Below, one piece after another: positions 18,901-63,300 of a DNA stretch of 64,000 nucleotides; the first letter of the stretch is position 1; every line of letters starts with the position of its first letter. Made by a program: the position numbers and the translations under genes. The notes beneath the pieces were generated by a model. That model saw only the letters and a program-made list of their open reading frames with translations, was not told the origin of the DNA and did no database searches. Source of the DNA: Ditylenchus dipsaci. Lineage: Eukaryota > Nematoda > Chromadorea > Rhabditida > Anguinidae. Location: assembly GCA_004194705.1 (NCBI GenBank), contig SADC01001298.1, forward strand, positions 62,001 to 126,000, read 5' to 3'.

Positions 18901-21900
18901 AATCGGCTTTAACAAAAGTGAAACGAATGTTTGAGAAAATTAGAGGTGGAAACGGGACGCGGCATTCCGTCCCGCTTTGTCGAATTTCGAAACATCGTCC
19001 CGTGATCCCGCCGAAATTTTTTTGACACCTGTCCTGAAAAAATTATTCAAATTGTGTCACATTTCCATCTCTAGTGAAAATCATATGGTCATTCCCTGCC
19101 TTCTCTCTATCCACTTTAATACTACGAAGGTTTTAAAATTCACCTAGTCACGAAAAAATGCCTACATTTAATCTTGCAGTCATATATCAGAGAAGGTGTG
19201 TTTGAAATGTAATTCTCTGAAAGCACATTCTTTTCTCATTAGTTACCGTATTTTCTCTAACAGACTGGCCTCCCCTCGACTTTCAAGACTTATATCTCAC
19301 CCCAGGGAAAATGTATTCCAAAGCTGTTTAATGCGTTTTCTCAAACCTCTACTTTTGAGATTTCAGTTGAGCACCCGGAAATCTCGAGATCGACCTCAAA
19401 ACTTTCCAGTTTCGGAGGAATTCAAAATAAACGAGCCGGCCCGTTTAATAGAGAAAATACGGTATTTCATAATGGTAATTGAAAAAAATTACCGTATTTC
19501 CTCTAATAGAAGCCCATGGGCTTCTATTTTTCAACCTCACAAAAATCTTGAAATTGTCAATCACAAATGACCTTAACTCCGAAACTTAGTCAAAAATAGG
19601 GGGGGAGGGCTTCTAATGGAGCATGGGCTTATATTAGAGGAAATACGGTAACTTAAAGGCTCGTTCAAAACTCTTAATTGGAGCATTATTTGCATCAACA
19701 ATAATGGTTACAATCAGTGTTGTCCATTTGGCTCGCGCGAGCCAAACGCTAGACCTAAAATCGCATGTCCTAGCGAGCCAAATGGGTTCGAGCCATATGG
19801 CTCGCTTTTTTTTTATATATGCGAGCCAATTGGCTCGCGTACTTGTTTTTTTTAGCGAGCCGAACGCGAGCCAAACAATACGAGCCATTTGTATCGCGAA
19901 CCATTTGGCTCGCAAACAAAAACGAATGGTTCGGCTCGCGCTTTTTATGTGAGCTTTGTCAATTTATTGTTAAAGACAAATAAAAGGACAAATAAAGTGT
20001 TACTAGCTCAATATCTGCAAAAAATCAGTCAAAAAATGAAAAATAAACTAGATTTAGGCTTTATTTCAGCAAACAATATTTTCCGTGAGCCGAACCATAT
20101 GCTTATTATAGATGCGAGCCAAATGGCTCGCGAGCTAAGAAACTCTTGTCACTTTGTTCTTTAAATTGGCGAGCCATATGGCTCGCGAGCCATACGGCTC
20201 GCCAAGTTAGCTATTTGGCGAGCGAGCAGCTCGCGTGCTTTTTTTGAAGGGGCGCGAGCTGCTCGCTCGCAAACGAGCCAAACGCACAACACTGGTTACA
20301 ATGCTGAATTCCTAACCGAACTATTAGAAGAACCACTTCTAATTTTTTTTAATTCCATACATACTCCAATTTTTTTTAGGAAATTCGCCGCTACAAAAAC
20401 AGTTCTACTGTGAGTTGCTAATATGTTCGGACTAAATTTTATACTGGCAATTTTGCTAATTTAGTATGCTGGCTGGTGTGATCAAATAGCTGATGAATAC
20501 CTAATTGTTGAGATCAGATATGTAGGCAATTCGCAAATTACTTTCTCATTTAAAGCTAAATTTATTTGCACTTTAGGTGAAACACAGTCGATCTGAAAAC
20601 ATAATCGAGCCAGTCATTCCTATCGCCGATCTCATTCCAGCTATTAGCTCTGAAATTGCTGGTCAATCAGTTGTTAAAAGTAATTTTTTCCATACAACTT
20701 CCAGTTATTTTCGAAACAAATAATTATTCTAGCCGAGGAAGAATTGAGACGGGAAAGACAACAGCAGTCAATAATGAGGAGAGAATGGGGGACAGTGGCT
20801 TGAAAACACATGTGAATACCTTCCTGCAAGCCCTGCTCAACCATGCTGTCACACTCAATTTCTTGCAGACCGTCAAAAGCACTAATGGTTGGTACAGTTA
20901 GACAACAAGTTTCCCAAGTGGGCTGATTTCTAACCATTTTGCTTATTTCAACAGAAAATGCTGGCTTACCAAAACATTACCACCATGCGCAAACTATCAA
21001 CGATCTATATTTATCGATCACACTGTAACATCATCATAACTATTATAAAGAAATTAACTTTTAAAATTTGATATGTTATAAAGTTATCACTAGGGTTGTC
21101 GAATGTTTGGTGTGGTGAAGTGGTCATGTGTGATCGATTAACCATGGTTTCGATTAATTCATTTCCGAAAAATCCATTAGAGAGGCGGCGAAGCCGCAAA
21201 AAATTTCGAATTCCTAATCGAGCGCTCGACAACCCTAATTATCACTAAAAAATCCTATTGAACCCATCCGAAAAATAAAAGAATAACTAATTTTTTGTAT
21301 TGCAAGCCGTCATTATTCTAAATGTGGTAACCGTGGTGAGTGGCCTATGTAAATTTAAGCGGCGACGAGCAGGCCTCTGTAATAAGAGGTACCGTATTTA
21401 GTAAACACTATTTACTCTATTAACTGCCCGCGGAAAGTTATTTTTTCAACCTTGAAAAAATCGGAAAATTATGAGATCGTCTTTGAGATTTTTAGGTGCT
21501 CAGCCAAAACCTAAAAGTTGGAATTAGGAGAGCTCGTGATAAATCAGAAAACGAAAAAGAAAAGATTTGCAAAATGTTTTCTCTAACTTGAGATATGGGG
21601 TCCATAGGGTGGGGAGTTAAAAGAGTAAATTCTGTATATTTCTGCCTAGTAGTGCATTATCAGCCAGTAAAATATGTCATTTTAGAGCTGAGCTTTATCT
21701 CTTTCTAGATTGTTCGGCACTTGTGCACTTCGTAGGGGCCTTGTTAATATTAACTGTGAATAGTAATTTTCAAGTCGCCTAAGTCCTTTTTATACGCCGA
21801 AAACGGCAAAAAAGTTGTTTTACCAATGTTTACTTTACTAAAAACATGAGTTTTCGAAAAAGAGTTCCTTATCAAAATTTGACTTTTAACAGTTAATGAA

Positions 21901-22446
21901 AAGGATCAACCGCCGCCCCCCCCCAAGTGCCGATACTTCTGCCCTTTTCCTAAATTTGCTTTATGATAGCCAAGCCGAGACTTACAATTGGAGCATGACC
22001 ACTTTGTGATCAGCGTTCCCTTTCTAGTGTTAGGTCATATAATTCAAAAAACTGGAAACTTAATTTTAGACTGGAATTTCCTGTGTGCTTTGGACGAATT
22101 CGATCAAAAAAATGGAAAGGCTCGCCATAAGATCAGTAACAAAGTCAAATGGCTAGATGAATTTCAAGCTGCAATAAATAACTACACCAATTTGTACACA
22201 CATGATGGGGACAACCTTCTGGTGGCTGACACTTGTCAGGTGAAATAAATTACAGTGGCTCAGATCTTTTTTACCGAACTTCTATTTGCAGGCTTGTGCA
22301 AATGCTGATATATCAGCCATTATCCAACTGTTCACCCAGGAAACCTACAATCGTGACACCTTGTTAGTGTATGAGCCAAATTTTGGTGATGTCGAAAATT
22401 CATGTCTTCCTGCTGTGGTAATTTTGACTAATTACATGTTAAATTG
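10000..22446 (+). CDS. Large multi-exon nuclear-type protein; 3' half possibly DUF4211 (QSER1/PRR12-like)
   Basis: Readable exons: 10000-10117 (MDHQKNSLPSNANINFAANP), 10141-10303, about 11201-11280, 11792-11841, 11906-12391, 12579-12813, 12871-13258, 13715-13863, 13914-14037, 14120-14353, 14409-14581, 14957-15032 (KHKKKKHKKHKKEKRRK), 18196-18473, 18527-18661, 19180-19195, 20577-20679, 20733-20887, 20955-21024, 22070-22239 and 22292-22417. The protein is low-complexity Ser/Pro-rich, then has a Lys-rich block, then folded-looking exons: GTFLVVKEEAFKSDCPLWKV then DNQNLLQKYLPLLL; THVNTFLQALLNHAVTLNFL; and CQACANADISAIIQLF. Phase is preserved across the 3-kb intron 15033-18195, supporting a single gene. 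The C-terminal pattern (FLxxLLxxA helix, later CxxC and YNxxTL) recalls DUF4211 of QSER1/PRR12; I recall that family only loosely, so the name stays open. Several exons are frame-shifted (near 12080, 12230, 12940, 13065, 13225, 14170, 18385, 20785). Confidence 0.6.
10540..10803. mobile_element. Palindromic element with C-run/G-run and GCTAGTAGCGAATAC tips
   Basis: The left end CGGCGCTAGTAGCGAATACC followed by a long C run pairs with a long G run followed by GGTATTCGCTACTAGCG. The centre contains GGTAGGCCAGCGTACGGAAG and GGGACATAAATTTGGGTA, which are shared with copies near 31160-31275, 41838-42188 and 54040-54530. It lies in an intron of the 10-22 kb gene. Confidence 0.8.
10853..11168. mobile_element. 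hAT-like palindrome, CAGTGTTGGGACCC tips
   Basis: CAGTGTTGGGACCCGAGGAA at the left and its imperfect complement at the right (GCGAGCCCCAAAACTG) bracket paired arms that include ACCGTAGTC/GACTACGGT. No clean 8-bp duplication is visible, so this is an older or eroded copy. It also lies in an intron. Confidence 0.6.
11590..11762. mobile_element. Small palindrome with GGCAAAACTTTTTTTGTG arms
   Basis: The TTTTATAGGGCAAAACTTTT arm at about 11598 pairs with AAAAGTTTTGCCCGTTTTTA at about 11721, around a short centre. It is intronic. No duplication could be assigned. Confidence 0.65.
13270..13535. mobile_element. Palindromic element, ACTCGCCAACG words
   Basis: The left arm GGAACGCAACTGACTCGCCA and the right arm ending GGAGAGCTGGTTGCGTTCC are complementary. 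Between them each arm reiterates CTCGCCAACG or its complement CGTTGGCGAG four or five times with varied spacers. It lies in an intron that starts 10 bp before it. Confidence 0.8.
14679..14903. mobile_element. Mariner-like MITE, CAGGGTGTCC tips, TA duplication
   Basis: Tips CAGGGTGTCCCACAAAAACT and AGTTTTTGTGGACACCCTG are flanked by TA at 14677-14678 and 14904-14905. The 225-bp length and lack of coding content indicate a non-autonomous Tc1/mariner derivative. It is intronic. Confidence 0.82.
15048..17740. mobile_element. 2.7-kb nested foldback with mirrored GGTGCAAA arrays, in an intron
   Basis: Outer arms: about 15055-15310 carries some 14 units of TTTTTGGTGCAAA with variable spacers, and about 17465-17715 carries the complementary units in mirror order. 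The distinctive unit CAAATCGCCTTGGTGC at 15186 faces GCACCAAGGCGATTTG at 17530. Next inward, ATAATACTCGTTTTCGCCCA pairs with TGGGCGAAAACGAGTATTAT. Further in, TGGTCAGAAAAGGACTTGG (about 15516) pairs with CCAAGTCCTTTTCTGACCA (about 16512), and a second pair of arms at 16606-16760 and 17140-17300 shares the TAGCGTATAAG and CCTTGGTCCCC blocks. The centre (16790-17045) holds a further hairpin, also found inverted at 28970-29205. This is a stack of insertions and not a single element. Confidence 0.85.
19244..19464. mobile_element. TACCGTATTT element, copy a
   Basis: Begins TACCGTATTTTCTCTAACAG and ends AATAGAGAAAATACGGTA. Just inside the tips, ACTGGCC faces GAGCCGGCCCG. The interior holds a stretch shared with other copies (TTGAGCACCCGGAAATCTCG, GATCGACCTCAAAA). 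TA lies at both ends, as expected for a TA-inserting element. Confidence 0.8.
19490..19650. mobile_element. TACCGTATTT element, copy b (AAGCCC word)
   Basis: Begins TACCGTATTTCCTCTAATAG and ends TTAGAGGAAATACGGTA. The inner word is GAAGCCCATGGGCTTC on the left and GGGCTTATATTAGAGG on the right, so the word is mirrored within the copy. It lies 25 bp from copy a. Confidence 0.85.
19715..20294. mobile_element. hAT-type palindrome with GCGAGCC words, 8-bp duplication
   Basis: Tips CAGTGTTGTCCATTTGGCTC and GAGCCAAACGCACAACACTG are flanked by the exact duplication GTTACAAT (19707-19714 and 20295-20302). The interior is built of many GCGAGCCAAATGG-type words on one arm and their complement on the other, with some unpaired DNA near 19950-20090. 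It is intronic in the 10-22 kb gene. Confidence 0.92.
21084..21235. mobile_element. Short hAT-like MITE, TAGGGTTGTCGA tips
   Basis: TAGGGTTGTCGAATGTTTGG at the left and GAGCGCTCGACAACCCTA at the right; flanks GTTATCAC and ATTATCAC match at 7 of 8 bases, consistent with an old 8-bp duplication. The inner arms carry the GATTAA/TTAATC words CGATTAACC and GATTAATTC. Confidence 0.65.
21395..21645. mobile_element. Degenerate TACCGTATTT element
   Basis: Starts GGTACCGTATTTAGTAAACA and ends near AAAAGAGTAAATTCTGTAT. The interior contains GGAGAGCTCGTGATAAATCA and the GTGCTCAGCC block, which correspond to the AGCTCGTGAGAGTTAAG and GTTGAGCACCC blocks of other copies. Ends are eroded. Confidence 0.5.
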
Positions 22447-23149: not shown

Positions 23150-23395
23150 AAAAAATTTAGAGCAATTTTAATTTGAAAATATTGAATTTTCGAATTGGGG
23201 CCCAATGCGAGGCCAAATGCGTGTCAACGCCTCCAAGAGGAACACGCACAGAAACCCCGACTCATGTGGTTAAAAACATCCTACAAAATTAAACATATTT
23301 TATTTAGATATATACATGACAGTAACAATAAATATTTATTTGTTTCTGACTTAGAGAATATTTAACAGAGCGATATTTCTCGGCTCACAGATACT

Positions 23396-25159: not shown

Positions 25160-26090
25160 AGCGAAGAAAAATAACGGCGTATAGACGATTCCCAAAACTT
25201 TGCTCCTAACGTTTTTAGTAAACGGCTGACAGTGTCAGCCTGACACACACCCGACTAACACTCATTGAAAAGTCAAGATAAGTTTACCCAATTCGATTCC
25301 ATTATTTGGAAAGTAGGAAGGCGGTCCTTTGAACTAACTTAAAATTCTAGACTCTCCTGCACGGCTTTTCAAAACGCCCGAATGTGTTTCTTTTAGCTTT
25401 TCAAGCGAATTTCGCGGGAAATTAAAAAAACTCCTCAAATTTGACTAGAAAAATGTGTTCCAGACTTAAAATAGCTTCTAGTTCGCTAAATTCTGTATTT
25501 TGAAAATTCGGTCTGTATTTTCTGAAGTATAGATTCTCAGCTTTCGTTTGCTGTATACCTCACCTCTGAAATACAAACCTCCGCATCGACATACAAAAAT
25601 ACCGTATTTCCTCTAATAGAAGCCCTCCTCCTATTATAAGTCCCCCCTCTAAATATAAGCCCTCCCTCCTTAAGGAGTATCCTAAAAATACAAGCCCCTC
25701 TTTTTATATAAACAAAATTTATATATTTTTTTTCGATAAATAGCTATTGTTAATGGCGGTAAAAGGCGTAAAGAATGTCTTTGTGTATTTGCTAAGCACA
25801 TCTTTCAAAGTGGACCGCTGGAATACTTGTGAATGAGTGAATCTTAAAGCAAGAGGGCATCAATTCAAGAACCATTTTAGCGGGTACTTTGTTAGTTTAT
25901 GCAGTAATCATCAGCAGAAAATCAAGAATAAACGATAAATAGTGACGTCGGTTTACGTTTAAGGAACAAGGAAATAAATGGGTTATATTTAAAATTGGCC
26001 ATAGAATACTGAATTTTGGCCATAGAATATTTAATTTTGGCCATAGATTTCTGAAAATTGGCCATAGATTTCTAAATTTTAGCCATACTC
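25160..26090. other. Intergenic: solitary TACCGTATTT end and a short tandem array
   Basis: At 25600 a TACCGTATTTCCTCTAATAG end is followed by three AAGCCC-type words (AGAAGCCCTCC, ATAAGTCCCCC, ATAAGCCCTCC), but no right end is visible, so this copy is truncated. At 25985-26090 a word of about 22 bp (ATAGAATATTTAATTTTGGCC and variants) is repeated five times. No gene is seen. Confidence 0.7.
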
Positions 26091-26096
26091 GCTCGA

Positions 26097-37600: not shown

Positions 37601-40600
37601 TCATTGATTTCAATAAAAAAATTCTGGCTTTTGCGACAGTAGTATCAGGTTGTCCGAAAATTTTTGCATCGAGTGATAAAGTGACTAGTTTTATTGAAAA
37701 TAGTGTCGTTAAATCGAGATTTTAATTTTTCGGAGAGAAAAGTTTTATGATTCTGAAAAACGACCGCCGAAATCGGAATCTCTGCGATATTTAGGACCAG
37801 ACTGTTAAAGAAGAACGGTCAAAGATTTCGAAAATCAAGTAAATAAAAGTGCCGCACCTAGGCGGGAACGAGCTTGAGGGTGTTGTTAAATCGAGCGGCG
37901 ACTGTATGAGCTTTTGGGTCGACAACTCTCTTGTTTGCTAGGAAACTGATATGCAGAGTCTTAGCTGACTAAGTAAAATAATACTTTCATGTACTGATTT
38001 GCAATAAATTATGAGTGAAATTTTGATTTAGAGATTAGAAATCTGAGATAAAATTGTTCTAATGCAATTCTTGACATTCCCACGCAAACTTTTAACGTAA
38101 ATTTACCATTTATAGTGCTGGCGACAGACGCAGCAGCTCGTCTAATGCAACTGCAGCAGCACCAACAACAGCAGCAGCAATTGCAGCAAGCCAACGAACT
38201 AGTCAACAACATAGCCCCTCCAGCATTGCCTGCTCGTCAACGCAAGAAGGCTACAGCCAAAAAGACCATGCAGCAACAGCAGCAACAACAACTGATGCAA
38301 CAACAACAGCATCCAAAAGCCAATCCTAGAAATGCTCGTATGAACGCCAGTCTAACAGGCATGCAGGAAAACATGCTGCCAACCATGGGTCTGCTCAATG
38401 CCATGGACAAAAAGCCATTGATGGGTGCTAATCTGGACAATAATTTGGCAAACCTAGCTGCTGAACTTGAGATCGGAAAGGTATTTTTAAATTAGGTAGC
38501 AGAAATAGTTTTAATTTTAAAATTTCAGATGCAAAACGAGGAGATGATGGCGGCCCAGCCAACTGCAAACTCGATATTCTCAAGACAATACATCGAGGAG
38601 TGGTTGCGCTACAGTGCTCGGTTGGTGTTTTTAAGTTGTCTGGTGATTCGGAGCGAATTGTGTGATATTTTTAGAAACGTGTTGAAGTTGAACTACGACA
38701 AGTAAGTAATCGGTGTTGGACACATAAGCTAAATATTGCATGAAAATAAAAATAAATGTGCCTGTCCATGTTTTAAAAGTAAAGAAAAAATTAAAAATGT
38801 ATGAAATCACGTTTTTTCCATCCTAGATCAAGATATTTCGGATTGCTAACATTTTAAGAATCTCTTTTAAAATTGAAATGGTCATTTCGAAAATTTGGAA
38901 GCCTATAACCGCTGTTTCGGGTTTTTATAGTAACACAGGTTGGGTCGGGACTAAGATTTTTGGAGTCTTTGGCTTCGGGCTCAAATTTATCTGAGCCATA
39001 GACTTAATTTTCATTAAATTTTCCTGTGTCAAGCTTGCTTTCATGTCTCCATATTTTCAGCAATGGCAAGCCATTTATAACAACTCGATCTGGCAATGAT
39101 GTGGCAGAAATATGCTCAGAAAACAACTTACGAGAGCCTGAGGTATAATTTTAACTCCTTACTTTCAAACTATTTTCTACACCTAATTAATTTGTAGATA
39201 AGCGAGGTGTCAACTGCTTTAGGAGTAATTGGTCTGAACTGCATGAATGCTAGAAACATTCAGCAGAAGGTGGCTGACTTCGTGGAGACTCTAGAGTCCC
39301 ACACCAACTTCCGCGAGATGAGAGCCTCTATAGATCGGTTGTTGAGTTTGTGCAGCGATGATGAGAACTTCACAGGCGCTGACGACTCCATCTCTGTGGT
39401 TAGTGTCAGTGAATCATCCACCAAAGGTAGTAGTAGCCAAACAGGAAAGAAAAAAATGAAAAAAATCTGTCAAATTACAGACACTGACATGAGCAAAGAC
39501 TTTGCCGATTTTGCCAGCTTTCCAAGAACTTTTGCAGAAGAAGATCCTCACGACTATATGCTTTCTAGAGAGCTGAAACAAGCAGAAATAGCGCTGGCCA
39601 CTCGACTCACCAACATCATTTTTCAGCTGCATCAGGCCAGGTAAGATATTTGGGTGATTGTTAAGAATGGAGTCTTGTGCAGATTTTCGACTTATAGCCT
39701 TTTCAAATTTTTATTTATTTTCGGCTCTTTGGCTTACCGTATTCTCTTTAATAGAACCACACTCTCTATTAGAACCACACTTTCTAATAGAACCACACCT
39801 CTTAAGACTCTCAAGCTGCGCCAACGGCCGTCTAACTTTAATGGATTGTCGAAGCCTGGGAGAATCTCTTGTATGAGCTCATCGTTGAGTCATTCAAATC
39901 GTGCGGAGTTCCCAATGCTACTGATGAGGACGACGGCATTCACTGATTCAAGAGTTGGGCCGTTTCCAAGTGGTCGAATCACCTTAATAAACAAAATTAT
40001 TTATTAAACTATTCATATAGGTCGATATAATATCGATATAACCATGACTGCCATAAGCGACAAAAATAAATGAAAAGTATAGTATAAATGAGCGTCCCCC
40101 TAAACCAAGCAGGTCCGAAATAAAGAATTTATGCGCGTATGCTGCAATGCTTGAATATGTTCAGAAGGTTGAAAAATAGAACCACACTCTCTATTAGAAC
40201 CACTCTCTCTAATAGAACCACACCCCCCAAGGGGGGTTACAAAATAGAACCACATATGGTTCTATTAGAGAGAATACGGTATCTTTTTGATTTTTTTAAC
40301 TTCCAAAAAGCCTCAGGTGGAGGGTAGGCTAGCGCACGTCAGAACGAGCTAAATTGAAAAGTTTGGAATCGAAAAACGTCAACGTCTTTGTTATGGTCTT
40401 GTTATGGCGTAATTCATGGGCGTAGGCAGCGGGGGGGGGGGAGTGGCTGAGAGGACTGTAGCCCCCGTCAGGTGTTTCGAAAAACATTGTTAATTAAAAA
40501 CACTATGAAACTCGGAAACGGTGTAGGGAAGATGACCTCTTGGGGGGCTTAGCCTCCCCCCGTCAAATTTTTCTGGCTACGCCTCTGGCGTAATTATTCT

Positions 40601-43600
40601 AAAATTGTTCACATCAAATAAAGAAGATGGTTTTCAGTCTGCCCGACATCGTTGACCGCCTAGCTATGAAAATGGAATCCATCAAAGCACACGACGTGCA
40701 AGTCAACAAGCAATGTAGTGATGCGCACAAGAGCTTGCAAGTGGCCAATGAAAAGTATGAAAAACTAAACCAACAGCTCAAAGACCGCAAAAATGAAATT
40801 AAAAAGCTGGAAAAGAAGGCTAAATCTGAGGCGTAAGTACATCAGCTGCTTGATTTAATCAGTTAAAAAAAAGTGAACTCATATTTCTAGGCAATTGGCT
40901 GCTGAGAATAGTGAACTCCACGACAAATTGGACGCTTTTAAGAAGGAAGTCAGCCATTTGCAAAGACAGGTATGAGATATTTGTTGGCAAAGTTTTATAA
41001 ATTGTAATCCACTATGAACTTTTAGATTAATGAAGAGCAGATGAAGTACAAGCGAGACACCCAGTCATTGGCTGATTCCAAGAAGCACTTGCATGTAAGT
41101 CTTTGTAGTCAAATAGGTCAAAGTTCAAATCTAACTAACATGTATTTGTACGAAAAACTTCACTAAAAGTATAACACTTGAACAGTATTATCTGAAAAAA
41201 TTACAGTCAACCTGAAAATTGTTGACCTGCTTGCTTCAAATACGGCCCTATCCTAGAAGAGGGGGCCAAATATTGCCTTGGTCCCCTTGCTGATTTTTAT
41301 CAATTTTGCCTTGGTCCCCCCTGTTTTTTTTCTTATTGTTTTTTTTCTTTTTTTTAATGATTTTAAAATTATAACAAGTAAAATAATAATAATTACTTTT
41401 ATTAAACTTCACGAGTCATGGATAAGCCGGTTTTTTCACAACTTGTTTGTTGGACTAGTCATTTGCCCACATGTAGAATGCGATGAGGCAGGTTGCGAGA
41501 CGGAGTTTTGGCTCCTGGATGACGATTCTTTCCTGACGGTATCTCTCGAACACAGCTTGCTATTTTTCCTGCACCTCTACTGCCCTTATACACATGTCGA
41601 TTAAGTTTAAAATAAATCTGTATTCCATCTATTCTTTCGAAGCGCTTATCGATTGACATTGACAGATGGGTGCGCGACGTTTCACTACCAGGACAGTTAA
41701 CTACCGGGCCGTTTCACTACCGGGCGTTTCACTACCGACCGTTTCACTACCAGCCGTTTCACTACCGGGCCGTTTCACTACCGGGCCGTTTCACTACCGG
41801 GTTCATTTTATATTCAAAATTTCTTCGAATTCAAAATTTGGCGCTAGTATAGAATACCCCCCCCCAAATCGGACCTTTTCAAAATCGGTGTAACTACCCT
41901 TGCAAACAAAAAGTTTAGGCTCAGCCTTAGGCTTGGGGGTAGGCCAGCAAACGGAAGTTGTGACTAATAAAGAGTTTGCGCACATTTTCCGGGGTCTGGG
42001 ACATAAATTTGGGTAGTCTTTACTTAAGTTTTAGAAGGAAAAAGGGGGGGGGCGTTGGTATTCCATTCTTCCGTACGCTGGCCTACCCTCAAGCCTAAGG
42101 GCTAAGCCTAAATTTGTTGTTTGCAAGGGTAGTTACACCGATTTTGAAAAGGTCCGATTTGGGGGGGGGGTATTCTATACTGGCGCCAAATTTTGAATTC
42201 GAAGAAATTTTTTAATATAAAGTGAACCTGCTAGTGAAACGGCCCGGTAGTGAACTGTCTTGGTAGTGAAACGTCCTGCTCCCTTGACAGATTCCAATTC
42301 TCTCAAGTGGCTTCGTTCGGCAATTTGCTCTGTACTGTAGCACAAGACATTTTTCATGCGAAGTGCGGTTACATCGACAATCTCAACACTTTCAAAGATT
42401 TTGGTGCGAGCCATTGAATTGGAGAACCCTGTAAACACGATTAATCAAAACTAATAAAGACAACGAAAACCCATAGAGAAAGATTTTAACAGAACTGACT
42501 AAAGACCTAAAAACTCCAAATACAATGGCGGGAAAAACAACAGGGGTGACCAAGCCAAAATTGATTATAATAAAAGAGAGACCAAGGCAAAATTTGTCCC
42601 CCTCTGCCAGGATAGGGCCGTTACAAAAAACAAAAGTTCAAAAAACTCTCACCTACTTACGCGCTCATAATCCTGCATATTCTAACGATTCGGCGGTCGC
42701 TCTTTACATACTGCGCTTGAAGAGCAACGATGAAATTCAAGAGACCTCAATGGCAAATGTCAAATTTTGTTTGCAGACGATAATTGGCTGCCTAAGCGAA
42801 ATTATTGTTATGGTGACTTCTGCTTCTGCATCAGGGATCCCAGCCAAAATTTTGTGAAAAAGGTTTTTGTTCAAAAAATTGAAAAAAGTCAAGGAAAAGG
42901 ACACATTTAGTTTTCGAAAAATATAAAAGTATAAAAAAAATTTCGGAGCGTATGGCCTTTTTCTCAGCTCAAGAAAAAAGACCAGCCGTCGAAAAAAAGG
43001 CAAGTTTGGCACCCTGTTCTACATGGCGTTGGTTTGTAAACTATTTTAAAAGAGTGGCAAATCAAGACGCAATTAGAACTTTTCTTCTAAACACAATAAA
43101 AGAACCATGCCTAGGGTAGTCTGGTGGACCTCCGTCAATCCAAAATTTTTTCCTAATCGTTGGATTTACGTACCGATTTTTTGATCGGGTTTCTAAAAAT
43201 AAAAGGCATGCAATTAAATTTTTATGACTAACTGTAAAAATATTCAGGTGGAGATGACCTCTCGAGCTACCGAAATCCAAAAGCTTAGCAACCAGCTGGA
43301 AGAGAAGGCTCAGGCTTTGAAAAAGAGCGAATCTCAATTGGCTAATGTAATGTTTTTGACTCTCTTTTAGACTATTTACCAACACTGCTGCGTTTCAGGA
43401 ACGCAAGTCCAATTCTTCTATCATTTCCAGTCTCACAGAACGAGTGAAGAAGGCCGAAATGAGTTTGCTTGAGCATAAGCTGGAAGATGGGCTCAAAATT
43501 TTGGAGAGGGCTCGTGATGATTGTGTCATGCAAATTCGTTCCTTGGAAGAGCAACAGAAAAGGTAGGCAACCAATAGTATTTTAGAAGGTATCATTAGCA

Positions 43601-53738: not shown

Positions 53739-56700
53739 TCAAAAATTGAGCGAAAACGTTAATTTTTTGAGTTGACTGGCTAGATTACTGGAAGACCTTG
53801 AACTTGCCCTGATATGTTGGCGACAAGTGCCACAATGAGAAACCATCGAGGTGTTAGAACATTCCTCACAAGTATTGAAATGTAGGCAAGGCATAAACAG
53901 AATTTCTCTCTGCAAAAAAATAATTTTTTTACAATTACTTCAGGGATTGAAATGAGGGCTTGTAACTTAAAAAAAATCTATTATATGCGCCAAAGGTGGT
54001 AAAACCGGGTTAAAATCTACAAGCAATCTTCAAAACTTCAACCCTAGTAGCTAATACCATCCCCCCTAAAAATTTCTCATTCTAAAATCTACGTAAAACA
54101 CCAAGTATATGTCCCAGACACAGAAATAAGTGCGTAACACAGTTATTAGTCTTCCGGGCGCTGGCCTACCCCGAGTTTAGGACTAATCTTAAACTTACTG
54201 TTCAAAAGGATAGTTACACCGACTTTGAAAAAGTCAGATTCTTAAAGGGGGGGGGGGGGTTACGTATAACCTCCATTAATCCCTAGGTGGGACTACTTTT
54301 CGAACCCTCGAAAATCTGAAAATTTTGAGGTCAATCTTGAAATTCTTGGGTGAAAATCATAAATCGCAAAAGGGAAACCGGTAGAGCTCGTGAGAGTTAA
54401 GAAAATGCAATAAATATATTTGAAAAATATTCGCTTTGGGCTCATATATAGGTCTCAAAGTCAGGATTGGGTGATTAATAGAGGGCGGGGATTAATAGAG
54501 GTTATACGGTATTTGCTACTATCGCCAAAACTTCAAATTCTATCTGCATATACAAACCTTGGAGTCAAGACAAATGACGCATAAGTGTTCTCGTGAAAGT
54601 TTCTCCTTCTCCATTTCTAATCGCTGGACTTTTTCTCGCAGCATGACCTCTCGTCGCTCACTTTCTCTTAGCTAAACTCAATAAGATGATGAATTTAAGT
54701 TTTGCTGTTAAATCTAAAATTGCTTGATTATTTTTCAAAAAAATTCAAATTATTTGTTTTTATTTCAAGGAATTTTTATTCTATTTTTTGTCCGAAGAAG
54801 TTATTTTAGCATAATATTTAACAGGGAACAAAGATTCAATCAAGTAGCCTTGGCAGCCCAATAAAAGTTGATTTTGGTTCAAACCATACCTTTTTAATAA
54901 GACTAATGCATTCTCCTATAGATTTAGAATCTTTTTCTTGCTCACAGTTCCGTCTGCCAATAAGCTCGCTGGCATCCTGAAATTGTGATTTGTAATTTTC
55001 CTTTTTAATCAACTCGGAGTTATTCGCACATTAAAGAAATATGTGTATGATACCTGAGATTCGAATGAAGGTAATAGACGAGCGAAAACCTTGAACATAG
55101 TATAATCTTAACAAAATTTTGAATTTCAAAAAGACTACCAAAGAACAGATGGAACTATTTTTGTTGATTTTTCGCAAAACAGTAGTATGGAATGAAGTGC
55201 TAAATATATTTTTTATTAAATAAAAAAATCTAAATCATTGTGCAAGCACGATTTTTTCACACGTTTTCAAAATGAGTGTCTTCCCTTTGCTTTTTAAGAC
55301 CGATTTTATGTGAATACAATTTTTTGTCATGTGACCATTGATAAAATTTAATGTTTAAGCAAACTAAGAAAAAAGTAATAAACTACCTGGTCGAAGTGCA
55401 ATCATGAGAAGAAATCCTAGCCTTCTTAGAATTGTATTTTTGCCTCCTAAAGCTACAGAAAATTCATCATTCTTAGTCAACTCATGTAGAACATGGCTCA
55501 TTTCAGTGTCAAACTGCTAAAATTTTAAGAGATTAAGAGTTTTTTGTGCATCAAAAGCTAGGCGACCTTGTAGTATTTGTAAAGATTCGGAACATTGTCA
55601 TTTTTAGGCTTCAGCACTGGACGCTGATAGAAGTTAGACATAGCTTAAAAATAAATTACAAACGTTGTGAACTATCAAAATATTACCTGCTCGAGGGTCT
55701 TCCACGTACAAAATGATCGATCAAGCACTAAAATATTGTATTGGATGTGATAATTATTATTAAAAAAGTATTATTAACCAAGAAGAATATTTTCTCTTAT
55801 GCGCAAGTCAAGTTGTGTACCACTTACAATCAAGCAATCCACCAATCTAAATATTTTCAATATAAATAATTACCAATTGAAAGTGTGAATCTCTTTTTAA
55901 AAAATCTTTAAAGAATTTAACACTTACAGACCCGAATATAAGTTTGTATAAGCACGTTAAAGAGACTGTGCTAATACGGTGCTGGTCGTTTTCGATTTGG
56001 TTGGTGGATGAGCCCCTTTGTCTGCCCTCGAAGCAAAGCCCCCCACCCATGCCATCTTGTTCAGCACAGATTTTTTAACTTCCTGGCTAAATTAAACTAC
56101 CGGATTCCCTCTTATTTCAGCTCAAACATAATTTAAAACAGAAGTTTCAGACTACTTTGAGTTTGGAAACTGCATGGTTCTAATTAATCCCCGATGAGAA
56201 ATTAGAGAAAATACGGTATTTGAACAAAGCCAAAACTACGTTTTTTCAAGATCTGAGCATGTTTAAAGTTGAAACGATAGAAAACGCGCAAAAAATGAGG
56301 GACAGACCATTTTGGGATTTTTTCGCCTTGGTCCGCCTATGGTTTTTGCAATTTTTGTCTTGATCCCCCTATTATTTTAAACAAATTTCGCGTTTTCTAT
56401 CGTTTTAGTTCCTAAAATATACTTAATTTTGTTAGACCTTAAAAAACGATATTTCGGCTCTAATCAATAGTGTACTACTGCCAATTTGCTTAGACAAAAA
56501 TTGCAGTCACAAGCCCGTTAGTGTTAAAAAAAAAATCCTAAGAATTCAAGCATGTTTTTGCATGAAAACATTTTTTTAAATTCTAAAATGATGTACCTTT
56601 CAAATGTTTCATTAGCAATGGTTGGGTGTCTGGGTGGCTTAGTATGCAGAAATGGACCATAGCTCCAAGGCTATAACTCTTCTTCAGCATTTTTTCTACA

Positions 56701-59310
56701 ATTATTTCCAACTTTTGCTCATATGTTGGTTCTTTGACTACATCTTTAGAAGTATCCAAAATAATTCCAGCATTTGATCGATCTTCGACTAACTCCCTTT
56801 GAAAATTGCCAGAAACTAGCTTCTAAAAAAATCTTAGTGTTGAAATTAGAAAAACCAATTTCACTACCTCAAGAATAGATTTTTGTTTAAGTGAGCAAGA
56901 ATTGGACAAAGAGAAACTGCTTGGTCGAATTTGGCAATAGTTGAGGTAAGAAGTGTAAAATTTACGGCCAAGCTTTCTATGGTAATTGCTTTGTGAAGAT
57001 CCTTCGCAACCTTGGCTAGTCCAACTATTTTATCATTGTGAACATCTTGGTTGCTAAACAAAAATTCTTTGAGACCAGTTACTCTAACGCGTATATTAGA
57101 ATCCTCGGTAAATATTTTCTACGCCCGCTAATTTATTTGGTTGTGATTTATATACTTCTTTTCAAAAGAAACCATTAATGGATGGTTTTGAGCTTGTTGG
57201 CTGTATGTATTTGTGATTTGTACTAGCAGGTCAAAAGGTGGCGAGGAAAGTTCCAAAAACTTGTTTTACTATTTAAAAGCTGTATATAGTTTTTGTTATG
57301 TGTGGGTGGGTTGTGGGTCGGCACGGCGACAATTCCGCGGGAGACAGTTCCGCGACGGATAATTCCGACGGATAATTCCGCGGAATTTTCAATTTTTGAC
57401 GTTCGTGTCGAGAAAAACCAAATTCTGACACTGGATTCGTGTACAGCATGGTGGATTCCATATTCACCTTCTTCAAATTTTAACGTATTGTCCAATTTCA
57501 GATTCCACTCCAGACAAAAAAAACTTTTAAAAAAAATCCGTGTTTTAAATTTGACCACGAGTTTTAGATTAAAGCACCTTGTATGAAGTCGACCATTCTG
57601 ATCACGAATCTGGTGTCAGAATTTAGTTTTTCTCAACAGGAACGCCAAAAATTCCGCGGAATTATCCGTCGCGGAATTATCTGTCGCGGAATTATCCGTC
57701 GCGGAATTGTCTCTCGCGAAATTGTCTCGCGCGGAATTGTCGCCGTGCCTGTGGGTCTCCACTTTTGTGTGTAAGCAAGATTTTCTACCACTTTTTTGCA
57801 AATTATGTCGGGTATCTCACCGGAACCCTGAAACTCAACATCTTAGATCTCTTTTAAGCTTGCACCCGTAAAATTAAGGGGCTCTAAAAAGTTGTTTAAT
57901 TCCGTCTACCGTATTTTGTCTTAATAGACCCCCATGGGGGATTTTTTTTAACTCTCAAAAACATGTGAATTATCAATCAAAAATGGGCTCAACTCTGCCC
58001 ATTAAATTGGGGAAAAATTGGGGGTTGGGGATTATTAGAGAGTGGGGGATTATTAGAGAAAATACGGTTTACTGAAAGTGGCGGATTTTAGCCTGGATTT
58101 GGCTGACTTTCGTGTTCAAGCAAAGTGTTCAACTTTCTGCCAGTTTTCACAGAAATTTGTATCCGATGTCTTTCCAAGCTCTTACCGTACAACCTTTACC
58201 AATTTTCCATGAGGATAAATTTTCAGCCCCTGAAAATTTTGAAACTGTAAATCAAAAATGGCCTTAATTCGGAATCCTAGTTAAAAAATGTGGGGATTAT
58301 TAGGGGTGGGGATTAATAAAGGTTATACGGTAAATTGATTTACAATAGGCGACAGTCGTCGACAGAAACTAAAGGGTGTCTATAGAGCTCTCCTATAACA
58401 TAACAAATTTACACAGAAGAGGTAAGATGGATATGAGGGATGGTCGGTGAAGAAAGAAAACGTGCGAAGAAACGTTCTAAAGCTGTTTTTCAGCCATGAA
58501 AGACATAAACACACCAAGAAACATTGTCTAAGCCTCAGTCTAAGTCTTACTCCGTCAAGACTTCGACTGAGGCTTAGACTTAGACTAATAGGTGTTCATG
58601 TAGCTAAAAAAGTCTGAGTCTAAGTTTAAGTTGCAGTCTGTGAACGAGCCATAAAATAATATTAGTTTGACAAACACCAATAAAAAGCTGATATGAATAC
58701 TAGGTGGTAGTGATTTTTAAAAACAAACCTAGCTACAGCAACTGCTCTAAAACACTAATAAGTTTTGAAGCCACGAAATTCTGCAGCTGACCAATAAGAG
58801 ACGTCCAAGCCACCCTGACTTCGCCAGTGGACAAGTCACTGTGCACGATATCTGCTATGGTCGACTTAGAAAAGTAGAAGGCATACATGTCTCTGACACT
58901 ACATGAATCAGCATTTTCGTAATTTTCTTGTTTGATTAAGTAGAAGAATTTGCTGGCCTTAAAACATTTTTAAAAACATAAATTTAAGCTATAAATTATT
59001 CACTTTCTGAAGTCCTGCAGACGCAAGGCAGGAATATTGTTTTCCTTGAAATTTTCAGCCGCGGAATACTAACTGTTATCATTTAAGAGTAAAACGGAAG
59101 TAAAATTCAAGCTGGAAATACAACTAAAGCAGTGTATTAAAAATATTCTGTAAAGAAAATCCTTGATTGATAAGATAATGCAATAATTCATATTTCAAAG
59201 AACAATTATGCAGCTTGGTGAAGCATGAGAATTGATTTGAGATTGAGAGAAACTAACTGAGGTGCACGGATGTATTCAAAAATTCTGACAGCATTCTCTT
59301 TGTGAAACAT
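53739..59310 (-). CDS. RING-finger protein, probable E3 ubiquitin ligase of unknown family
   Basis: Exons (minus): 59258-59310 (start MFHKENAVRIFEYIRAP), 59004-59068, 58737-58956, 56868-57053, 56597-56822, small exons near 55835 and 55687-55729, 55567-55643, 55387-55515, 55054-55089, 54890-54976, 54558-54671 and 53739-53909 (stop). The body is alpha-helical with no domain I recognise (for example AFYFSKSTIADIVHSDLSTG, VEKMLKKSYSLGAMVHFCIL). A coiled coil (SERREVMLREKVQRLEMEKE) leads directly into a C-terminal RING split by one intron: LCVICLDSK joined to REILFMPCLHFNTCEECS, then VSHCGTCRQHI. All eight zinc ligands of a C3HC4 RING are present, so the domain should bind an E2. Coiled coil then C-terminal RING is common in dimeric E3 ligases. 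The 57054-58736 intron contains three palindromic elements. It is the same strand as, and downstream of, RNase H1. Confidence 0.75.
54040..54535. mobile_element. G-run element with a TACGTATAACC element inserted in its right end
   Basis: Outer: CTAGTAGCTAATACCATCCC at about 54045, GGCGCTGGCCTACCCCGAG in the middle, then a G run, with the terminal ATTTGCTACTATCGCC only at 54512-54527. Inner (about 54261-54511): TTACGTATAACCTCCATTAA faces TTAATAGAGGTTATACGGTA. Removing the inner unit restores the expected G run plus TATTTGCTACTA end. It lies in a RING-gene intron. Confidence 0.75.
56190..56425. repeat. Solitary TACCGTATTT end and a CCTTGGTCC hairpin
   Basis: GAAATTAGAGAAAATACGGTA ends at 56218 without a matching left end. 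Next to it, ACGATAGAAAACGCGCAAAA (56272) pairs with TTTCGCGTTTTCTATCGTTT (about 56386), and the centre holds GCCTTGGTCCGCC and a degenerate second module. Confidence 0.65.
57320..57749. mobile_element. Palindromic element with AATTCCGCGACGGAT words, 8-bp duplication
   Basis: Tips GGCACGGCGACAATTCCGCG and CGCGGAATTGTCGCCGTGCC are flanked by the exact duplication TGTGGGTC (57312-57319 and 57750-57757). The left arm has about four CGCGACGGATAATTC-type words and the right arm about six, so the arms differ in word number. The inner arms (AAATTCTGACAC and complement) pair well. It is intronic in the RING gene. An 8-bp duplication fits hAT or P-type elements. Confidence 0.92.
57907..58335. mobile_element. 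Two TACCGTAT-type elements side by side
   Basis: The first (57907-58068) begins TACCGTATTTTGTCTTAATA with word GACCCCCATGGGGGAT and ends GGGGGATTATTAGAGAAAAT then ACGGT. The second (about 58184-58332) begins TTACCGTACAACCTTTACC and ends GGGGATTAATAAAGGTTATA then CGGTA, with the variant tip also seen at 54261-54511. Both are in the large RING-gene intron. Confidence 0.75.
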
Positions 59311-60054
59311 CTTTGAAATACTTTATAAAATTTCAATATTTTTTGCAAACAGGCAGAAAAAATCGAACCTGGTCATTAAACAAACTGCCTTGGTTTTTTT
59401 GTGGATTTTCGAAAACACAATTTTCTAAATTCAAACTCCATATAGTTATACATTCACCATCTCTGCCTAAACTCTATTTCGGCTATTTTGGTCGAGTTAC
59501 CATATCGTTACTAAAAAAATGCAAGCTCAAAAATATACCACTCTTGTTTTTTTTCAAAATGTGCACAAAATGGTTGCGAAAAAATCAACGTCCTTTCTGT
59601 TGCCTCTGTGAACCAGCGATTTTACGATTCCGGCTACCAGGGCTGTCCCGGAACAGGCATTCAACATTTTGGAAAACGGGAATCGGAACTTTTAGGTACT
59701 TGAAAAAATTCTCAAAAAGCGTAAGTAGATGGCTACCTAATAAAGTTTTATTCCAATTTCCCAATACAGAGGATATTTTTTTCTAGTACAGGCCTTAAAA
59801 AATAAAGACTCATTCTTTTAACTTTAAAAGTTGTACAGGGTGCTTTTTCTTAAAAATTAAAATTCTTATAGTCTGTAAATTTTTTGTCTAGAAAAAATTA
59901 AATCTGGTCGCTCAACATTTAAGAAAATGCGATAAAAGCGATGTGCAATTTTTTCCTCGGGATGGGATGTAGATTCTCAAATTTGAGGGGCTGAGTTGTT
60001 AGATAGAGGTAATAATTATTTGAATATCTACGCTAATCAGCTCGAATCTTTATT

Positions 60055-60306
60055 TACCGTATTTCCTCTAATATACCGACACCCTCTAATAAACCGACAC
60101 CCCTACTTCGAAGGTCCGTATCTCAGTCCAAAGAAAGAAATTTACATCGCTTTTTTTTGCGTTTTCTTAGCTCCCACGAGCTCTATCGATTCCGCTTTTT
60201 CGATTTTGGATCTTCATCCAAAATTGTCGAGATCGACCCAAAATTTTCACGATTTTGAGGGGTTGAAAAATAACCGACATGTCGGTATATTAGAGGAAAT
60301 ACGGTA
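60055..60306. mobile_element. TACCGTATTT element, ACCGACA word
   Basis: Begins TACCGTATTTCCTCTAATAT, then ACCGACACCCTCTAATAAAC and CGACACCCC. Ends ATGTCGGTATATTAGAGG and AAATACGGTA. The interior CTCCCACGAGCTCTATCGAT matches the 45113 copy. It lies between the RING gene and RNase H1, ending 21 bp from the RNase H1 stop. Confidence 0.88.
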
Positions 60307-60326
60307 TTAAAAAGTGTTCTGACAGC

Positions 60327-61840
60327 TTATATATTTGGTGTTACAAGCACAGAGGCAAATTTAGAGTAGTCAAAGTTGTAGGTGCAATTGCTAGACACAT
60401 TTGTCACTGGCAGGTCGATGGCCATCCTAGCTAGTCTGTCTGCCTTCAAAATAAGTAATTAAAAAAGTGTTTGAAACTAATAAACATCAAAATAGCCTTA
60501 CCAGTTCATTACCTCTTTCCCCGGCATGCGATCTAATATATTCAAAGCGTACACCTTGCTCAAACGTTTTTTGCCTTCAAATACACCTTCTTATCCATTT
60601 TTTTTTTGGGGATTGAAGTTGACTACTGACTGAGATACCTTATGTGTAAGTGTTTTAATCAGTCCTAAACAGTCGGTTCGAATGATCACCAATTGTCGGC
60701 TGAAAATCCAAATAAAGCAAAATATTTTGTAATTTTTAATTAGTTCATTATATGAAATTCATTTTTTTGGCAATACATGTCCTGTAATGTGGTATACTTA
60801 CTTATAATCTGGCCATTCTTTGACAGATTTCAAAGCAATGAAAATGGCATGAAGTTCAGCTGAATAACTTGCACGCGAATAATTCACCTCCACACTTTGG
60901 TTGAGAGGATGCCCGGGATTGACAAATATTCCTATGCCTGTTCTTAAAAATTGTTGTCCTCACTTGTATGACACGAAGCGTCGGTGTAGATCTTAAAAAA
61001 TACCAAAATGCTTAAATTTTCTAGGTACCAAGGCGAAATTCCGTGAACTTTTAGAAAAAAAAACTAACGATATTGACGATATTTCTAATTACGTCCTCAA
61101 TATAATGTATTTGCAGGTCTCCCAGACGTCCTTATTTTTAGATTCCAAATCTGACTTTCATTTAAATTGTTAGTGAAAATCTTATTTTCAGTAGCAAAAG
61201 AGCAATGAGCACGGGATAATTTAGCAGACCATATTTCCTCTGATAAGCAGAGCTGTCGACTTATTTCTTACCCCCGAAAATCAGAAAATGATACTTACCC
61301 CTTTAAAAACTACAAAAAAGTTGAAAAACATGTTTGAGTCCGTCCTAACATACACCGGCTTAGCCGGTTTTTTCCAGCATATTCTAGGACAGACTTAAAC
61401 ATATCTTAGATTCATGCTTAAATACACAAGTCCAACATACGCTGGCCTGCCCTCGCCTAAGCAGAAACCTAAAATGACCTAAAAAAATCATTAAGGGGAC
61501 CAAGGCAAACGCCCCCCCCCCATTGAAGGATAGGGCCAAATATTCCTCCAAGCTGAGGTGGTGTCCTTAGAGGAGGTCCTTAATCTCAAGGTGTCGCCTT
61601 ACTAGAGCATGTCGGCTTATTAGAAGAAATACGGTATTTTTGGTGAAACACCCTAAAAATTCCTTATTTTTTAGCAAATGTCCTTTTAAAAAAGGTATCT
61701 AGGCTTTTAAGTGATGTTTAGAAGCTAGAATTTGTGAAAACTTACAATGATAGAGTCTTCCTGACAATAAAAATTCTCTTTTACTTCCGTTGCACTTAAT
61801 GCTATTTTTGCTTTGAATCTGCTGCGCTTAGAAGTTTTTG
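60327..61840 (-). CDS. Ribonuclease H1, 5' end incomplete
   Basis: RNase H1 cleaves the RNA strand of RNA-DNA hybrids in nucleus and mitochondria. Exons (minus): 61746-61840, 60802-60991, 60639-60699, 60502-60574 and 60327-60443 (stop). All four catalytic carboxylates appear in order: IYTDAS (Asp), SYSAELHAIFIAL (Glu), LVIIRTDCLGLIKTL (Asp) and ELADRLARMA (Asp), preceded by the YIRSHAGERGNE loop with the conserved His. RTGIGIFVNPGHPLNQS matches the 'GIGvyfGpghplN' block of animal RNase H1. The reading frame shifts by one base at the T run near 60940 (DNNF to RTGIG); one extra T restores it. The N-terminal hybrid-binding domain was not found upstream, so either an exon is missed or the domain is absent. 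The gene is in tandem with the RING gene. Confidence 0.85.
61228..61640. mobile_element. TACCGTATTT-type element with an embedded CCAGCGTA hairpin
   Basis: The left end is eroded (ACCATATTTCCTCTGATAAG); the right end is TCGGCTTATTAGAAGAAATACGGTA. The word is GTCGACTTATT on the left and GTCGGCTTATT on the right. The middle holds ATAGGGCC with GGGACCAAGGCAAAC, the module also found in the 41243-42620 element, and a GCCAGCGTATGTTGG-type core. It lies in the first visible RNase H1 intron. Confidence 0.6.
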
Positions 61841-62700
61841 CTAAATATAAATAACACTTAGTATAGCTATCTTTATGTTTACTTATGGTTGATATTACGT
61901 TTAGCCACCTTTCTATCTTTTGATTCTACTATACAGGATCAGCGGTTTCAAACACATTTTTTCAAAACTACTATTTTCAAGGCGCAGCATTTGCTAAAGA
62001 TATAATAAAGTCATTGGAGGAAAAAATGTTGTAAAACTGACCAGAATAACTCCAACACCCATACATTTTGAAGAATAATTGTTGACTTCTAAAAAAATAA
62101 AATCTCTAGAGCAACAGCAGGCTCTCAGATCGGCAAAAATAAAAAATAAGACAAAAGTAAAACACTAGTAGAGAATACAATTTTCTAATTCTATTACAAA
62201 ACGGTCTGATTTTTTGTGACGATCAGCATAATGAACAGGCAAGCCGTAAATGAACACTATATCATTTACTTTATTTATGGTACTTATTGTGTTGACGCCA
62301 CTCGAACATGTTTGTCTTACGAAACATAAGAAACATATTTGAGTCTGTCCTAACGAAAAGGGGGAAGGTGGCGCTAACTCATTAAGAACCTTATTTTTGA
62401 ATTATAAAACCATGAAACTTAGTAAGCACAGCAATTTGCCAAATTTAAATTTGCGCAAAACCCCCTAATCATTTCAATAATGTTTTTCGGGCATTTAACT
62501 TTGGATTTATTTATTTATTTAACACCAATAAAATGAATTATATGATTAATTGTAGTCCGATCTGGCATTGTAAAGCAACGTCAGACTTGACTAGTGGATG
62601 CTTCAAGATTAATTAAATGCAAACAAAAAATACTTAGAGGTCGTAGTCAGAGTTTTCAAAATTAGAAGCTTTCACATTGGTTTTACGGTTTCTTATGCCT
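61841..62700. other. AT-rich stretch upstream of RNase H1
   Basis: The region should contain the RNase H1 promoter and any missing first exon, but I could not identify a start codon in phase with the exon at 61746-61840. No palindrome of note. Confidence 0.3.
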
Positions 62701-62704
62701 CATT

Positions 62705-63300
62705 ATAAACGTTGTCATTGTCGTTGTCGTTGGAATATTTTTTTTTAAAACCCTTTTTTTCGCCAACGACGACGACAATGACAACGACGACCTATTTATA
62801 AAAAATCCAACGACAACGCCAACGACAACGCCAAGGACAACGAAATTTTTCATTCAAAAATGGGCAAATTTCACATTTTCAGTCGAGATTTCGAGGGAAA
62901 ACATGTGGAGAATATAGTTACCGTATTTCCTCTAATAAGCGCCCCTGCTCCATTAAGCGCCCCGCTCTAATAAGCGCCCTCCCTGGAGGAGATTTGAAAA
63001 ATAAGCGCCCCTGCTCCATTAAGCGCACCCGCTCTAATAAGCGCCCCCCTAGACAGGGGATTGAAAAATAAGCGCCCCGGGGCGCTTATTAGAGGAAATA
63101 CGGTAATCCTTAAAATTCTGGTTAAAATGCAAAATTGTCTAATTTGGAAGAAAAATTTTCGTTGTCATCGGCGTTGTCGTTGGATTTTTTATAAATAGGT
63201 CGTCGTTGTCGCTGTCGTCGTCGTTGGCGTTGTCGTTGGCGCAAAAGTGCCTTTATAAAACATTTTTTCAAAGACAACGACGACGTTTATAAATAAGCCA
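62705..63300. mobile_element. Palindrome with ACAACGACGAC words, itself hit by a TACCGTATTT element
   Basis: AACGTTGTCATTGTCGTTGT at 62708 faces ACAACGACGACGTTTATAAA at 63275. The arms are runs of ACAACGACG or CGTCGTTGT words, and ATTTATAAAAAATCCAACGA pairs with TCGTTGGATTTTTTATAAAT. The centre is interrupted by a complete TACCGTATTT element at 62919-63105. Confidence 0.85.
62919..63105. mobile_element. TACCGTATTT element, AAGCGCCCC word, nested
   Basis: Begins TACCGTATTTCCTCTAATAA and ends TATTAGAGGAAATACGGTA. Between lie repeated units AAGCGCCCCTGCTCCATT and AAGCGCCCCGCTCTAAT and the mirrored GGGGCGCTT. It is inserted at TA inside the 62705-63300 palindrome. Confidence 0.9.

What the first reader, a model, noticed from the sequence alone, without database searches (positions are those of the whole stretch)
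19244..63105. Constant tip, copy-specific mirrored word: the TACCGTATTT family
At least seven copies share the tip TACCGTATTTYCTCTAATA and TA flanks (19244, 19490, 39735, 45113, 57907, 60055, 62919). The next bases inward differ by copy, yet always match between the two ends of the same copy: AAGCCC/GGGCTT (19490), AGAACCAC/TGGTTCT (39735), AAGCGCCCC/GGGGCGCTT (45113, 62919), ACCGACA/TGTCGGT (60055), ACCCCCA/GGGGGAT (57907). This is covariation within a copy, not ordinary drift. It implies either that the two arms are homogenised with each other (template switching or conversion across the hairpin) or that the word is a transposase-binding repeat that changes in a coordinated way.
Basis: partly seen in the sequence, partly recalled or inferred. 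Interest (0 to 1): 0.9.

Follow-up and report, generated by a model that had tools for sequence, protein, structure and literature searches.

The report
Jumping DNA with swappable address words
A nematode genome carries thousands of small jumping DNA elements whose ends share one fixed tip and differ in a six-letter 'address' repeated at the binding sites of a copy; the address goes with the element family and apparently with the enzyme that moves it, so it is family coevolution and not a copy correcting its own two arms.

Summary
In 329 kb sampled from the window's 227 Mb genome (probably the stem nematode Ditylenchus dipsaci), 42 paired elements have left and right words 83% identical, against 37% for random pairing. 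Genome-wide the tip (up to 2 mismatches) occurs 29,518 times, against 5 for a reversed control. The hypervariable block is six bases; the tip outside it is nearly constant.

The copies are non-autonomous relatives (MITEs) of a pogo-superfamily transposon, Passer type. Two full-length copies carry the same tips, BrkDBD and DDE_1, one also HTH_Tnp_Tc5 and DD35D spacing; insertion is at TA. The word recurs, with small changes, in 18-bp subterminal repeats and an end palindrome.

Words are mostly discrete and family-wide. They recur on unrelated backbones, and 18 copies of one backbone carry 14 consensus words. Two words map exclusively to two transposase types: 5 of 5 and 8 of 8 BrkDBD hits, and none of the other 87 listed. 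Coordinated change of a transposase-binding repeat is supported; arm homogenisation is not.

Noteworthy: words are saturated while backbones are still 72% identical. Closest precedent: coral CMITEs (PMC2872659).

The parts
19244..19464 (-). MITE, backbone A, word AACGGG (decayed; left word GACTGG). Strand convention here: + means the palindromic end is on the left
19490..19650 (+). MITE, backbone B, word GAAGCC (outer right TAAGCC); palindromic end left, direct-repeat end right
   Evidence: 97% identical to a GAAGCC copy on contig C2 (element 39)
25600..25668 (+). single end: tip plus array of units with word GAAGCC and variants; no partner within 1.2 kb
39735..40281 (-). longer non-autonomous copy (type D), word GAACCA at 8 exact places, 18-nt arrays at both ends
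   Evidence: 82% identical to a GAACCA copy on C2
45113..45368 (-). MITE, backbone A, word AGCGCC (outer left AGCGGC)
54260..54511 (.). decayed copy, word ATCCC, not counted among the 42 pairs
56098..56218 (.). decayed backbone-C copy, words no longer agree
57907..58069 (+). MITE, backbone B, word ATCCCC (left AGACCC)
60055..60306 (-). MITE, backbone A, outer word TACCGA at both ends, inner direct unit AACCGA
61227..61636 (.). decayed copy, word about AGCCGA, backbone not assigned
62919..63105 (-). type D short copy, word AGCGCC at 7 exact places

Best explanation
The copies are non-autonomous elements (MITEs and longer deletion derivatives) of a large clan of Passer-type pogo transposons with many, probably dozens of, subfamilies in one nematode genome. 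The typical end is built as tip CCGTATTTYC + constant half-site CTCTAATA + a six-base word. Half-site and word repeat every 18 bp at one end; at the other end the word is followed by its reverse complement, then TATTTTTCAA. Inferred mechanism: the tip is the cleavage and joining signal common to the clan (insertion at TA). Each transposase subfamily reads its own word with its N-terminal Brinker-type helix-turn-helix, while another part (perhaps HTH_Tnp_Tc5) reads the constant CTCTAATA. Both ends must carry the word that the local transposase reads, so words agree within a copy. When a transposase lineage changes its recognition helix, only derivatives with the matching word amplify, giving word families. 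Shown: structure, word statistics, family-wide words, transposase domains between these tips, exclusivity of two words to two transposase types, TA insertion. Inferred: that the BrkDBD reads the word, and that selection for matched ends causes the agreement.
For: Full-length copies L051 (2,336 bp, outer word GAGCCA) and L052 (2,244 bp, outer word GAACGA) have these tips at both ends. L052 encodes BrkDBD (9.8e-10), HTH_Tnp_Tc5 (1e-6) and DDE_1 (2.8e-12); L051 encodes BrkDBD (5.9e-9) and DDE_1 (6.7e-6). Spacing in L052 is DD35D across a 46-nt GTAAGT..TTAG intron, assumed spliced. Coordinates only: all 5 listed BrkDBD hits of 36.3 bits lie between GAGCCAC tips, and all 8 of 39.4-39.5 bits between GAACGAC tips; 0 of the other 87 listed lie within 3 kb of either word. 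3 of 8 GAGCCAC pairs and 5 of 13 GAACGAC pairs hold no listed BrkDBD; two of the latter are MITE-sized, 254 and 259 bp. L053 (ATCCCC, one end seen) and L054 (AACGAC, array seen, tip outside the piece) have other recognition-helix residues. The domain models as a helix-turn-helix (mean pLDDT 90.9) close to Brinker bound to DNA (2glo: TM 0.89 by query, rmsd 1.2; sequence E 1.2e-5). Words shared between unrelated backbones: 9, null mean 0.94, 0 of 5,000 draws reach 9. Own-end agreement.
Against: No binding was measured. Only five words are tied to a transposase N-terminus (L051-L054 and the remnant in element 16), too few to test a helix-word code. Exclusivity is within types defined by identical bit scores, probably clonal, so it shows association by descent, not recognition. 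On backbone C the words follow the backbone (0.78 at 0.85, 3 pairs). Foldseek E-values are weak (0.14-0.19).
Confidence: 0.7

Rival explanations
1. Arm homogenisation: the two arms of each copy are corrected against each other by template switching or conversion across a hairpin, so words drift per copy but stay matched.
For: Word agreement is strong, and the ends could fold back. The ordered case of both outer words changed and inner ones not (element 37, GCTCAC outside, ACTCAC inside) fits a one-time arm-to-arm copying event. Four elements deviate identically in both arms.
Against: Words are shared by families and by unrelated backbones, with many members per word (AGCGCC 12 of 54). Of 42 elements, 16 deviate in one arm, 6 differently in both arms and 4 identically. 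Arm mismatch per site is higher in the word (0.145) than in the tip (0.073; 38 elements).
Confidence: 0.07
2. Ordinary family diversity: many old families whose words drifted without any tie to a changing transposase; agreement is only inheritance from a symmetrical founder.
For: Five same-word pairs are 90-98% identical. On backbone A, word distance correlates with backbone distance (Mantel r 0.32, 0 of 5,000; B 345 of 5,000, C 1,632 of 5,000). On backbone C word and backbone diverge alike (3 pairs).
Against: On backbone A at 72% identity the words are at 33%, lower than any of 125 six-column backbone blocks (minimum 44%), while the tip is 87%. Identical words on unrelated backbones are not expected from independent drift.
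Confidence: 0.15
3. Plain co-divergence: each autonomous lineage carried its own set of MITE backbones from the start, and word and backbones split together, without any backbone ever switching to another transposase.
For: Similar words sit on more similar backbones (ACTCAC, GCTCAC, GCTCCC), and the Mantel signal on backbone A. Compatible with the best explanation; it differs only on how backbones got their words.
Against: On backbone B, pairs with 82% backbone identity share 8% of word letters (4 pairs), and backbone A pairs at 75-80% have words at chance level (0.34). That suggests jumps rather than gradual change, but samples are small.
Confidence: 0.3

Closest known systems
Passer family, pogo superfamily (PMC7386202, passages seen; PMC9976928, passages and one section seen)
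   Same: TA target duplication, DDE_1 catalytic domain with DD35D, BrkDBD plus HTH_Tnp_Tc5 N-terminus, full copies of 1.6-4.0 kb, short TIRs.
   Different: What I saw of those papers describes one short TIR per element. 'Subterminal' occurs in PMC9976928 only in a reference about Tol2 and 'tandem' not at all, and 'subterminal' not at all in PMC7386202; word arrays, an end palindrome and re-used MITE backbones were not in the passages seen.
CMITE elements of Acropora corals, piggyBac-related (PMC2872659, abstract and two sections read)
   Same: MITE families with a conserved internal region, a short constant tip (CC[C/T]T) and family-specific sequence just inside it, matching between the two ends in families I-III.
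   Different: Different superfamily (TTAA target). Six families, about 1,600 copies in A. millepora, one internal region. Here there are three short backbones plus long copies, 26 consensus words (some from decayed copies), the word repeated at several sites per copy, and transposases tied to words.
Brinker DNA-binding domain (2glo) and CENP-B (1hlv)
   Same: Same helix-turn-helix fold; sequence match to 2glo.
   Different: Single cellular proteins, not a set of paralogous transposases with differing sites (from general knowledge).

Membership tests
Passer (pogo superfamily) | DDE_1 (PF03184) catalytic domain | tested here: met
   L052 2.8e-12, L051 6.7e-6
Passer (pogo superfamily) | DD35D spacing | tested here: met
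   [quoted passage not shown] not counted in L051
Passer (pogo superfamily) | BrkDBD plus HTH_Tnp_Tc5 (or HTH_Tnp_Tc5 alone) N-terminal domains | tested here: met
   L052 has both; in L051 only BrkDBD was found, and the piece after it had no Pfam match
Passer (pogo superfamily) | TA target-site duplication | tested here: met
   TA at both ends in 35 of 42 elements (the tip pattern itself favours this) and no longer duplication. Paralogous sites without the element keep one TA for elements 19, 21, 7 and, with a one-base gap, 26; further alignments for 26 and those for 5, 12 and 39 have other letters there
Passer (pogo superfamily) | Place inside the Passer clade of a transposase tree | not tested
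   No reference transposase set was aligned
MITE | Short, non-coding, TIR-bounded, high copy number, moved by a related autonomous element | tested here: met
   Most copies 120-270 bp, 29,518 tips genome-wide, same tips and words on transposase-bearing copies; movement itself not observed
CMITE-like (internal region more conserved than TIR) | Internal region conserved between families that differ in the TIR | tested here: met
   Backbone A 72%, word 33%, tip 87% over 14 consensus-word families

The most novel reading that the evidence does not exclude
MITE backbones are repeatedly re-addressed. A parasite backbone acquires, at several sites in concert, the six-letter word of another Passer transposase subfamily, and so switches its helper. 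The set of BrkDBD paralogues and words in this genome would then be a natural recognition code for this helix-turn-helix, diversifying under pressure to avoid or regain cross-mobilisation.
Probability: 0.35. Interest if true: 0.75.

Novelty: new variant of a known kind. Interest (0 to 1): 0.5.

Why it matters
How transposases and their ends split into mutually deaf families is, to my knowledge, mostly inferred from single pairs in different species. Here one genome appears to hold dozens of word families and 52 different BrkDBD scores among 100 listed hits on a nearly constant framework, so the question of which residues read which bases, and how the sites of an element change together, can be tested by alignment within one genome. 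It also bears on how MITEs outlive the transposase that made them.

Tried and rejected
Rejected: chance; per-copy arm homogenisation; a longer target duplication (flanks agree at 1 base in 13 of 42, at 2 in 2, at 3 in 0). Led nowhere: text search for the tip (27 papers, 20 listed, unrelated titles); the tip in IMG/VR; single-sequence PDB search; long ORFs of the sample for a transposase (read by eye). Paper searches for anything like word families on a shared backbone listed CMITEs as the nearest; most subscription papers and Repbase are not held, so this is weak evidence of absence. Limits: the 30 loci were chosen by exact tips; groups A-D were set by BLAST and eye (A 18, B 7, C 4, D 8; five elements left out: 7, 15, 17, 20, 38; 20 was listed under B); some consensus words come from decayed copies (4, 10, 28); one representative per word was used, which favours low word identity; the nine sharings include three that come from adding the four L051-L054 words to group D, and AGCGCC counts three times; 54 of 1,117 ends printed letters; genome protein matches are lower bounds (150 of 437 candidates scored, 150 of 286). 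The published draft has 227.2 Mb against 160-170 Mb by flow cytometry (PMC6929663, passages), so copy counts may include alleles.

Full report
What is there. The window lies in a 226,978,389-base assembly of 1,359 contigs. An F-box gene on contig C1 is 94% identical over 98% of its length to a Ditylenchus dipsaci protein. The published draft of that nematode has 227,234,012 bp in 1,394 scaffolds (PMC6929663, passages), so the host is most likely D. dipsaci or a very close relative. The 19-nt tip with up to 2 mismatches occurs 14,716 times forward and 14,802 reverse, against 3 and 2 for the reversed pattern.

Anatomy. From 329 kb in hand I took facing tips (up to 4 mismatches) 60-1,200 bp apart: 42 elements. 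The commonest layout is asymmetrical. One end reads tip, word, reverse complement of the word, TATTTTTCAA or near it. The other reads tip, word, then often CTCTAATA plus the word again, once or more, with an 18-nt period. So a well-kept copy holds the word, exact or nearly so, at about four sites or more; decayed ones hold fewer exact repeats. The word is six bases, usually followed by C; outside it the tip is nearly constant, inside it the two ends are not alike.

Statistics. Own-end identity of the word is 0.833 against 0.371 for random pairings, above all 100,000 permutations. Genome-wide counts for neighbouring units give 157 AGCGCC-AGCGCC pairs where 15 are expected, and 0 AGCGCC-ACTCAC. 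Of 54 printed direct-repeat ends (of 1,117), 18 distinct words occur, 10 of them more than once; AGCGCC leads with 12, and six of the eight singletons are one base from a repeated word.

Family, not copy. BLAST of the insides and inspection give three short backbones and a longer type, some of it with transposase remnants: A 18 elements, B 7, C 4, D 8, 5 unplaced. Five same-word pairs on one backbone are 90-98% identical and three are 78-82%; elements with different words are mostly 66-84% where the whole inside aligns. Identical words occur on different backbones (AGCGCC on A, C and D; AACGGG on A and D; AGGCGG and ATCCCC on A and B): 6 sharings, 9 when words of L051-L054 are added to D, against 0.94 expected and a maximum of 6 in 5,000 draws for the latter set. 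Deviations of the outer word: 16 one-arm, 6 both arms differently, 4 both arms identically, 12 intact, 4 unassigned. The four identical cases (GAAGGC, GCCGCC, GAAGAC, ATGACC) may simply be further words, and some one-arm cases are asymmetries shared by other copies.

The mover. Reading frames in elements 16, 31 and 34 looked by eye like a pogo-type transposase; Pfam gave only a weak DDE_1 match in 31 (E 0.0077, below its cut-off). DDE_1 has 181 matches and BrkDBD 100 in the genome, both lower bounds. Two stretches fetched around DDE_1 matches related to the fragment in element 31 held elements with this very tip at both ends: L051, outer word GAGCCA, and L052, outer word GAACGA. L051's units are nearly all GAGCCA (some AAGCCA); L052's inner units are AAGCGA, AACCGA and GAGCGA. 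Domains are BrkDBD, HTH_Tnp_Tc5 (L052 only) and DDE_1, with DD35D spacing in L052. That is the architecture given for Passer in PMC7386202 and PMC9976928 (passages). Sites without the element show one TA for elements 19, 21, 7 and, with a gap, 26; alignments for 5, 12 and 39 do not show it. L053 has word ATCCCC (with variants) after a CTCTAATT half-site, one end seen; L054 has AACGAC and AAAGAC units, its tip outside the piece.

Word and transposase. Searching the exact tip plus word gave 43 GAGCCAC and 38 GAACGAC tips. All 5 listed BrkDBD hits of 36.3 bits lie inside GAGCCAC pairs and all 8 of 39.4-39.5 bits inside GAACGAC pairs; none of the other 87 listed is within 3 kb of either. Types were told apart by bit score, so this is association by descent. 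The four BrkDBDs aligned differ at recognition-helix positions (T/D/D/Q, S/S/H/V, T/T/M/R, I/I/R/R), in or just before a helix placed by the model at residues 33-41, with Drosophila distal antenna, Brinker and CENP-B domains as nearest folds and Brinker as nearest sequence.

Speed of the word. Over 14 consensus-word families on backbone A, mean pairwise identity is 0.87 in the tip, 0.72 in the backbone and 0.33 in the word; no six-column backbone block falls as low (minimum 0.44 of 125). In bins of backbone identity 0.60-0.80 the word stays near 0.34, about the level of random pairing. Word distance still correlates with backbone distance on A (Mantel r 0.32, 0 of 5,000), not clearly on B (345 of 5,000) or C (1,632 of 5,000; 3 pairs, word 0.78 at backbone 0.85), so C does not show the effect. 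On A and B words change faster than the rest and in concert. Whether by gradual co-divergence with the transposase or by re-addressing of a backbone I cannot decide with this sample.

Verdict. The best explanation is family-level coevolution of a transposase-binding word in a Passer clan, with MITE backbones re-used across words. It is a new variant of a known kind; the coral CMITEs (PMC2872659, abstract and two sections) are the nearest printed case I found.

Noticed in passing
window 7377-7860 and 8094-8573: Two long hairpins, arms 206 nt at 99% and 198 nt at 94% complementarity, with no tip of the TACCGTATTT family.
   Followed up: no
window 15056-15309 and 17466-17715: Two arrays of a ~20-nt unit (TTTTTTGGTGCAAA / TTTGCACCAAAAAA) in opposite orientation about 2.2 kb apart.
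   Followed up: no
window 41668-42283: Nested inverted repeats with a 16-nt array CGTTTCACTACCGGGC at one end.
   Followed up: no
L052 651-2894; elements 27, 37 and 40: Outer and inner words can differ in an ordered way that is the same at both ends (TAACCA outside, AACCCA inside; GCTCAC outside, ACTCAC inside; GAACGA outside, AACCGA and GAGCGA inside), as if the outermost site had its own reader.
   Followed up: partly
C1_421106 offsets 1807-2340, C2_335241 offsets 2212-2584 (sample stretches): A ~190-nt tandem repeat into which element 19 inserted; it supplied the empty sites.
   Followed up: partly
tip TACCGTATAACC at window 54511 and 58332, C1 21069, 126398 and 162346: A sister tip (AACC instead of TTYC) with words such as ATCCCC and AACGGG, so the tip also has family variants.
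   Followed up: no
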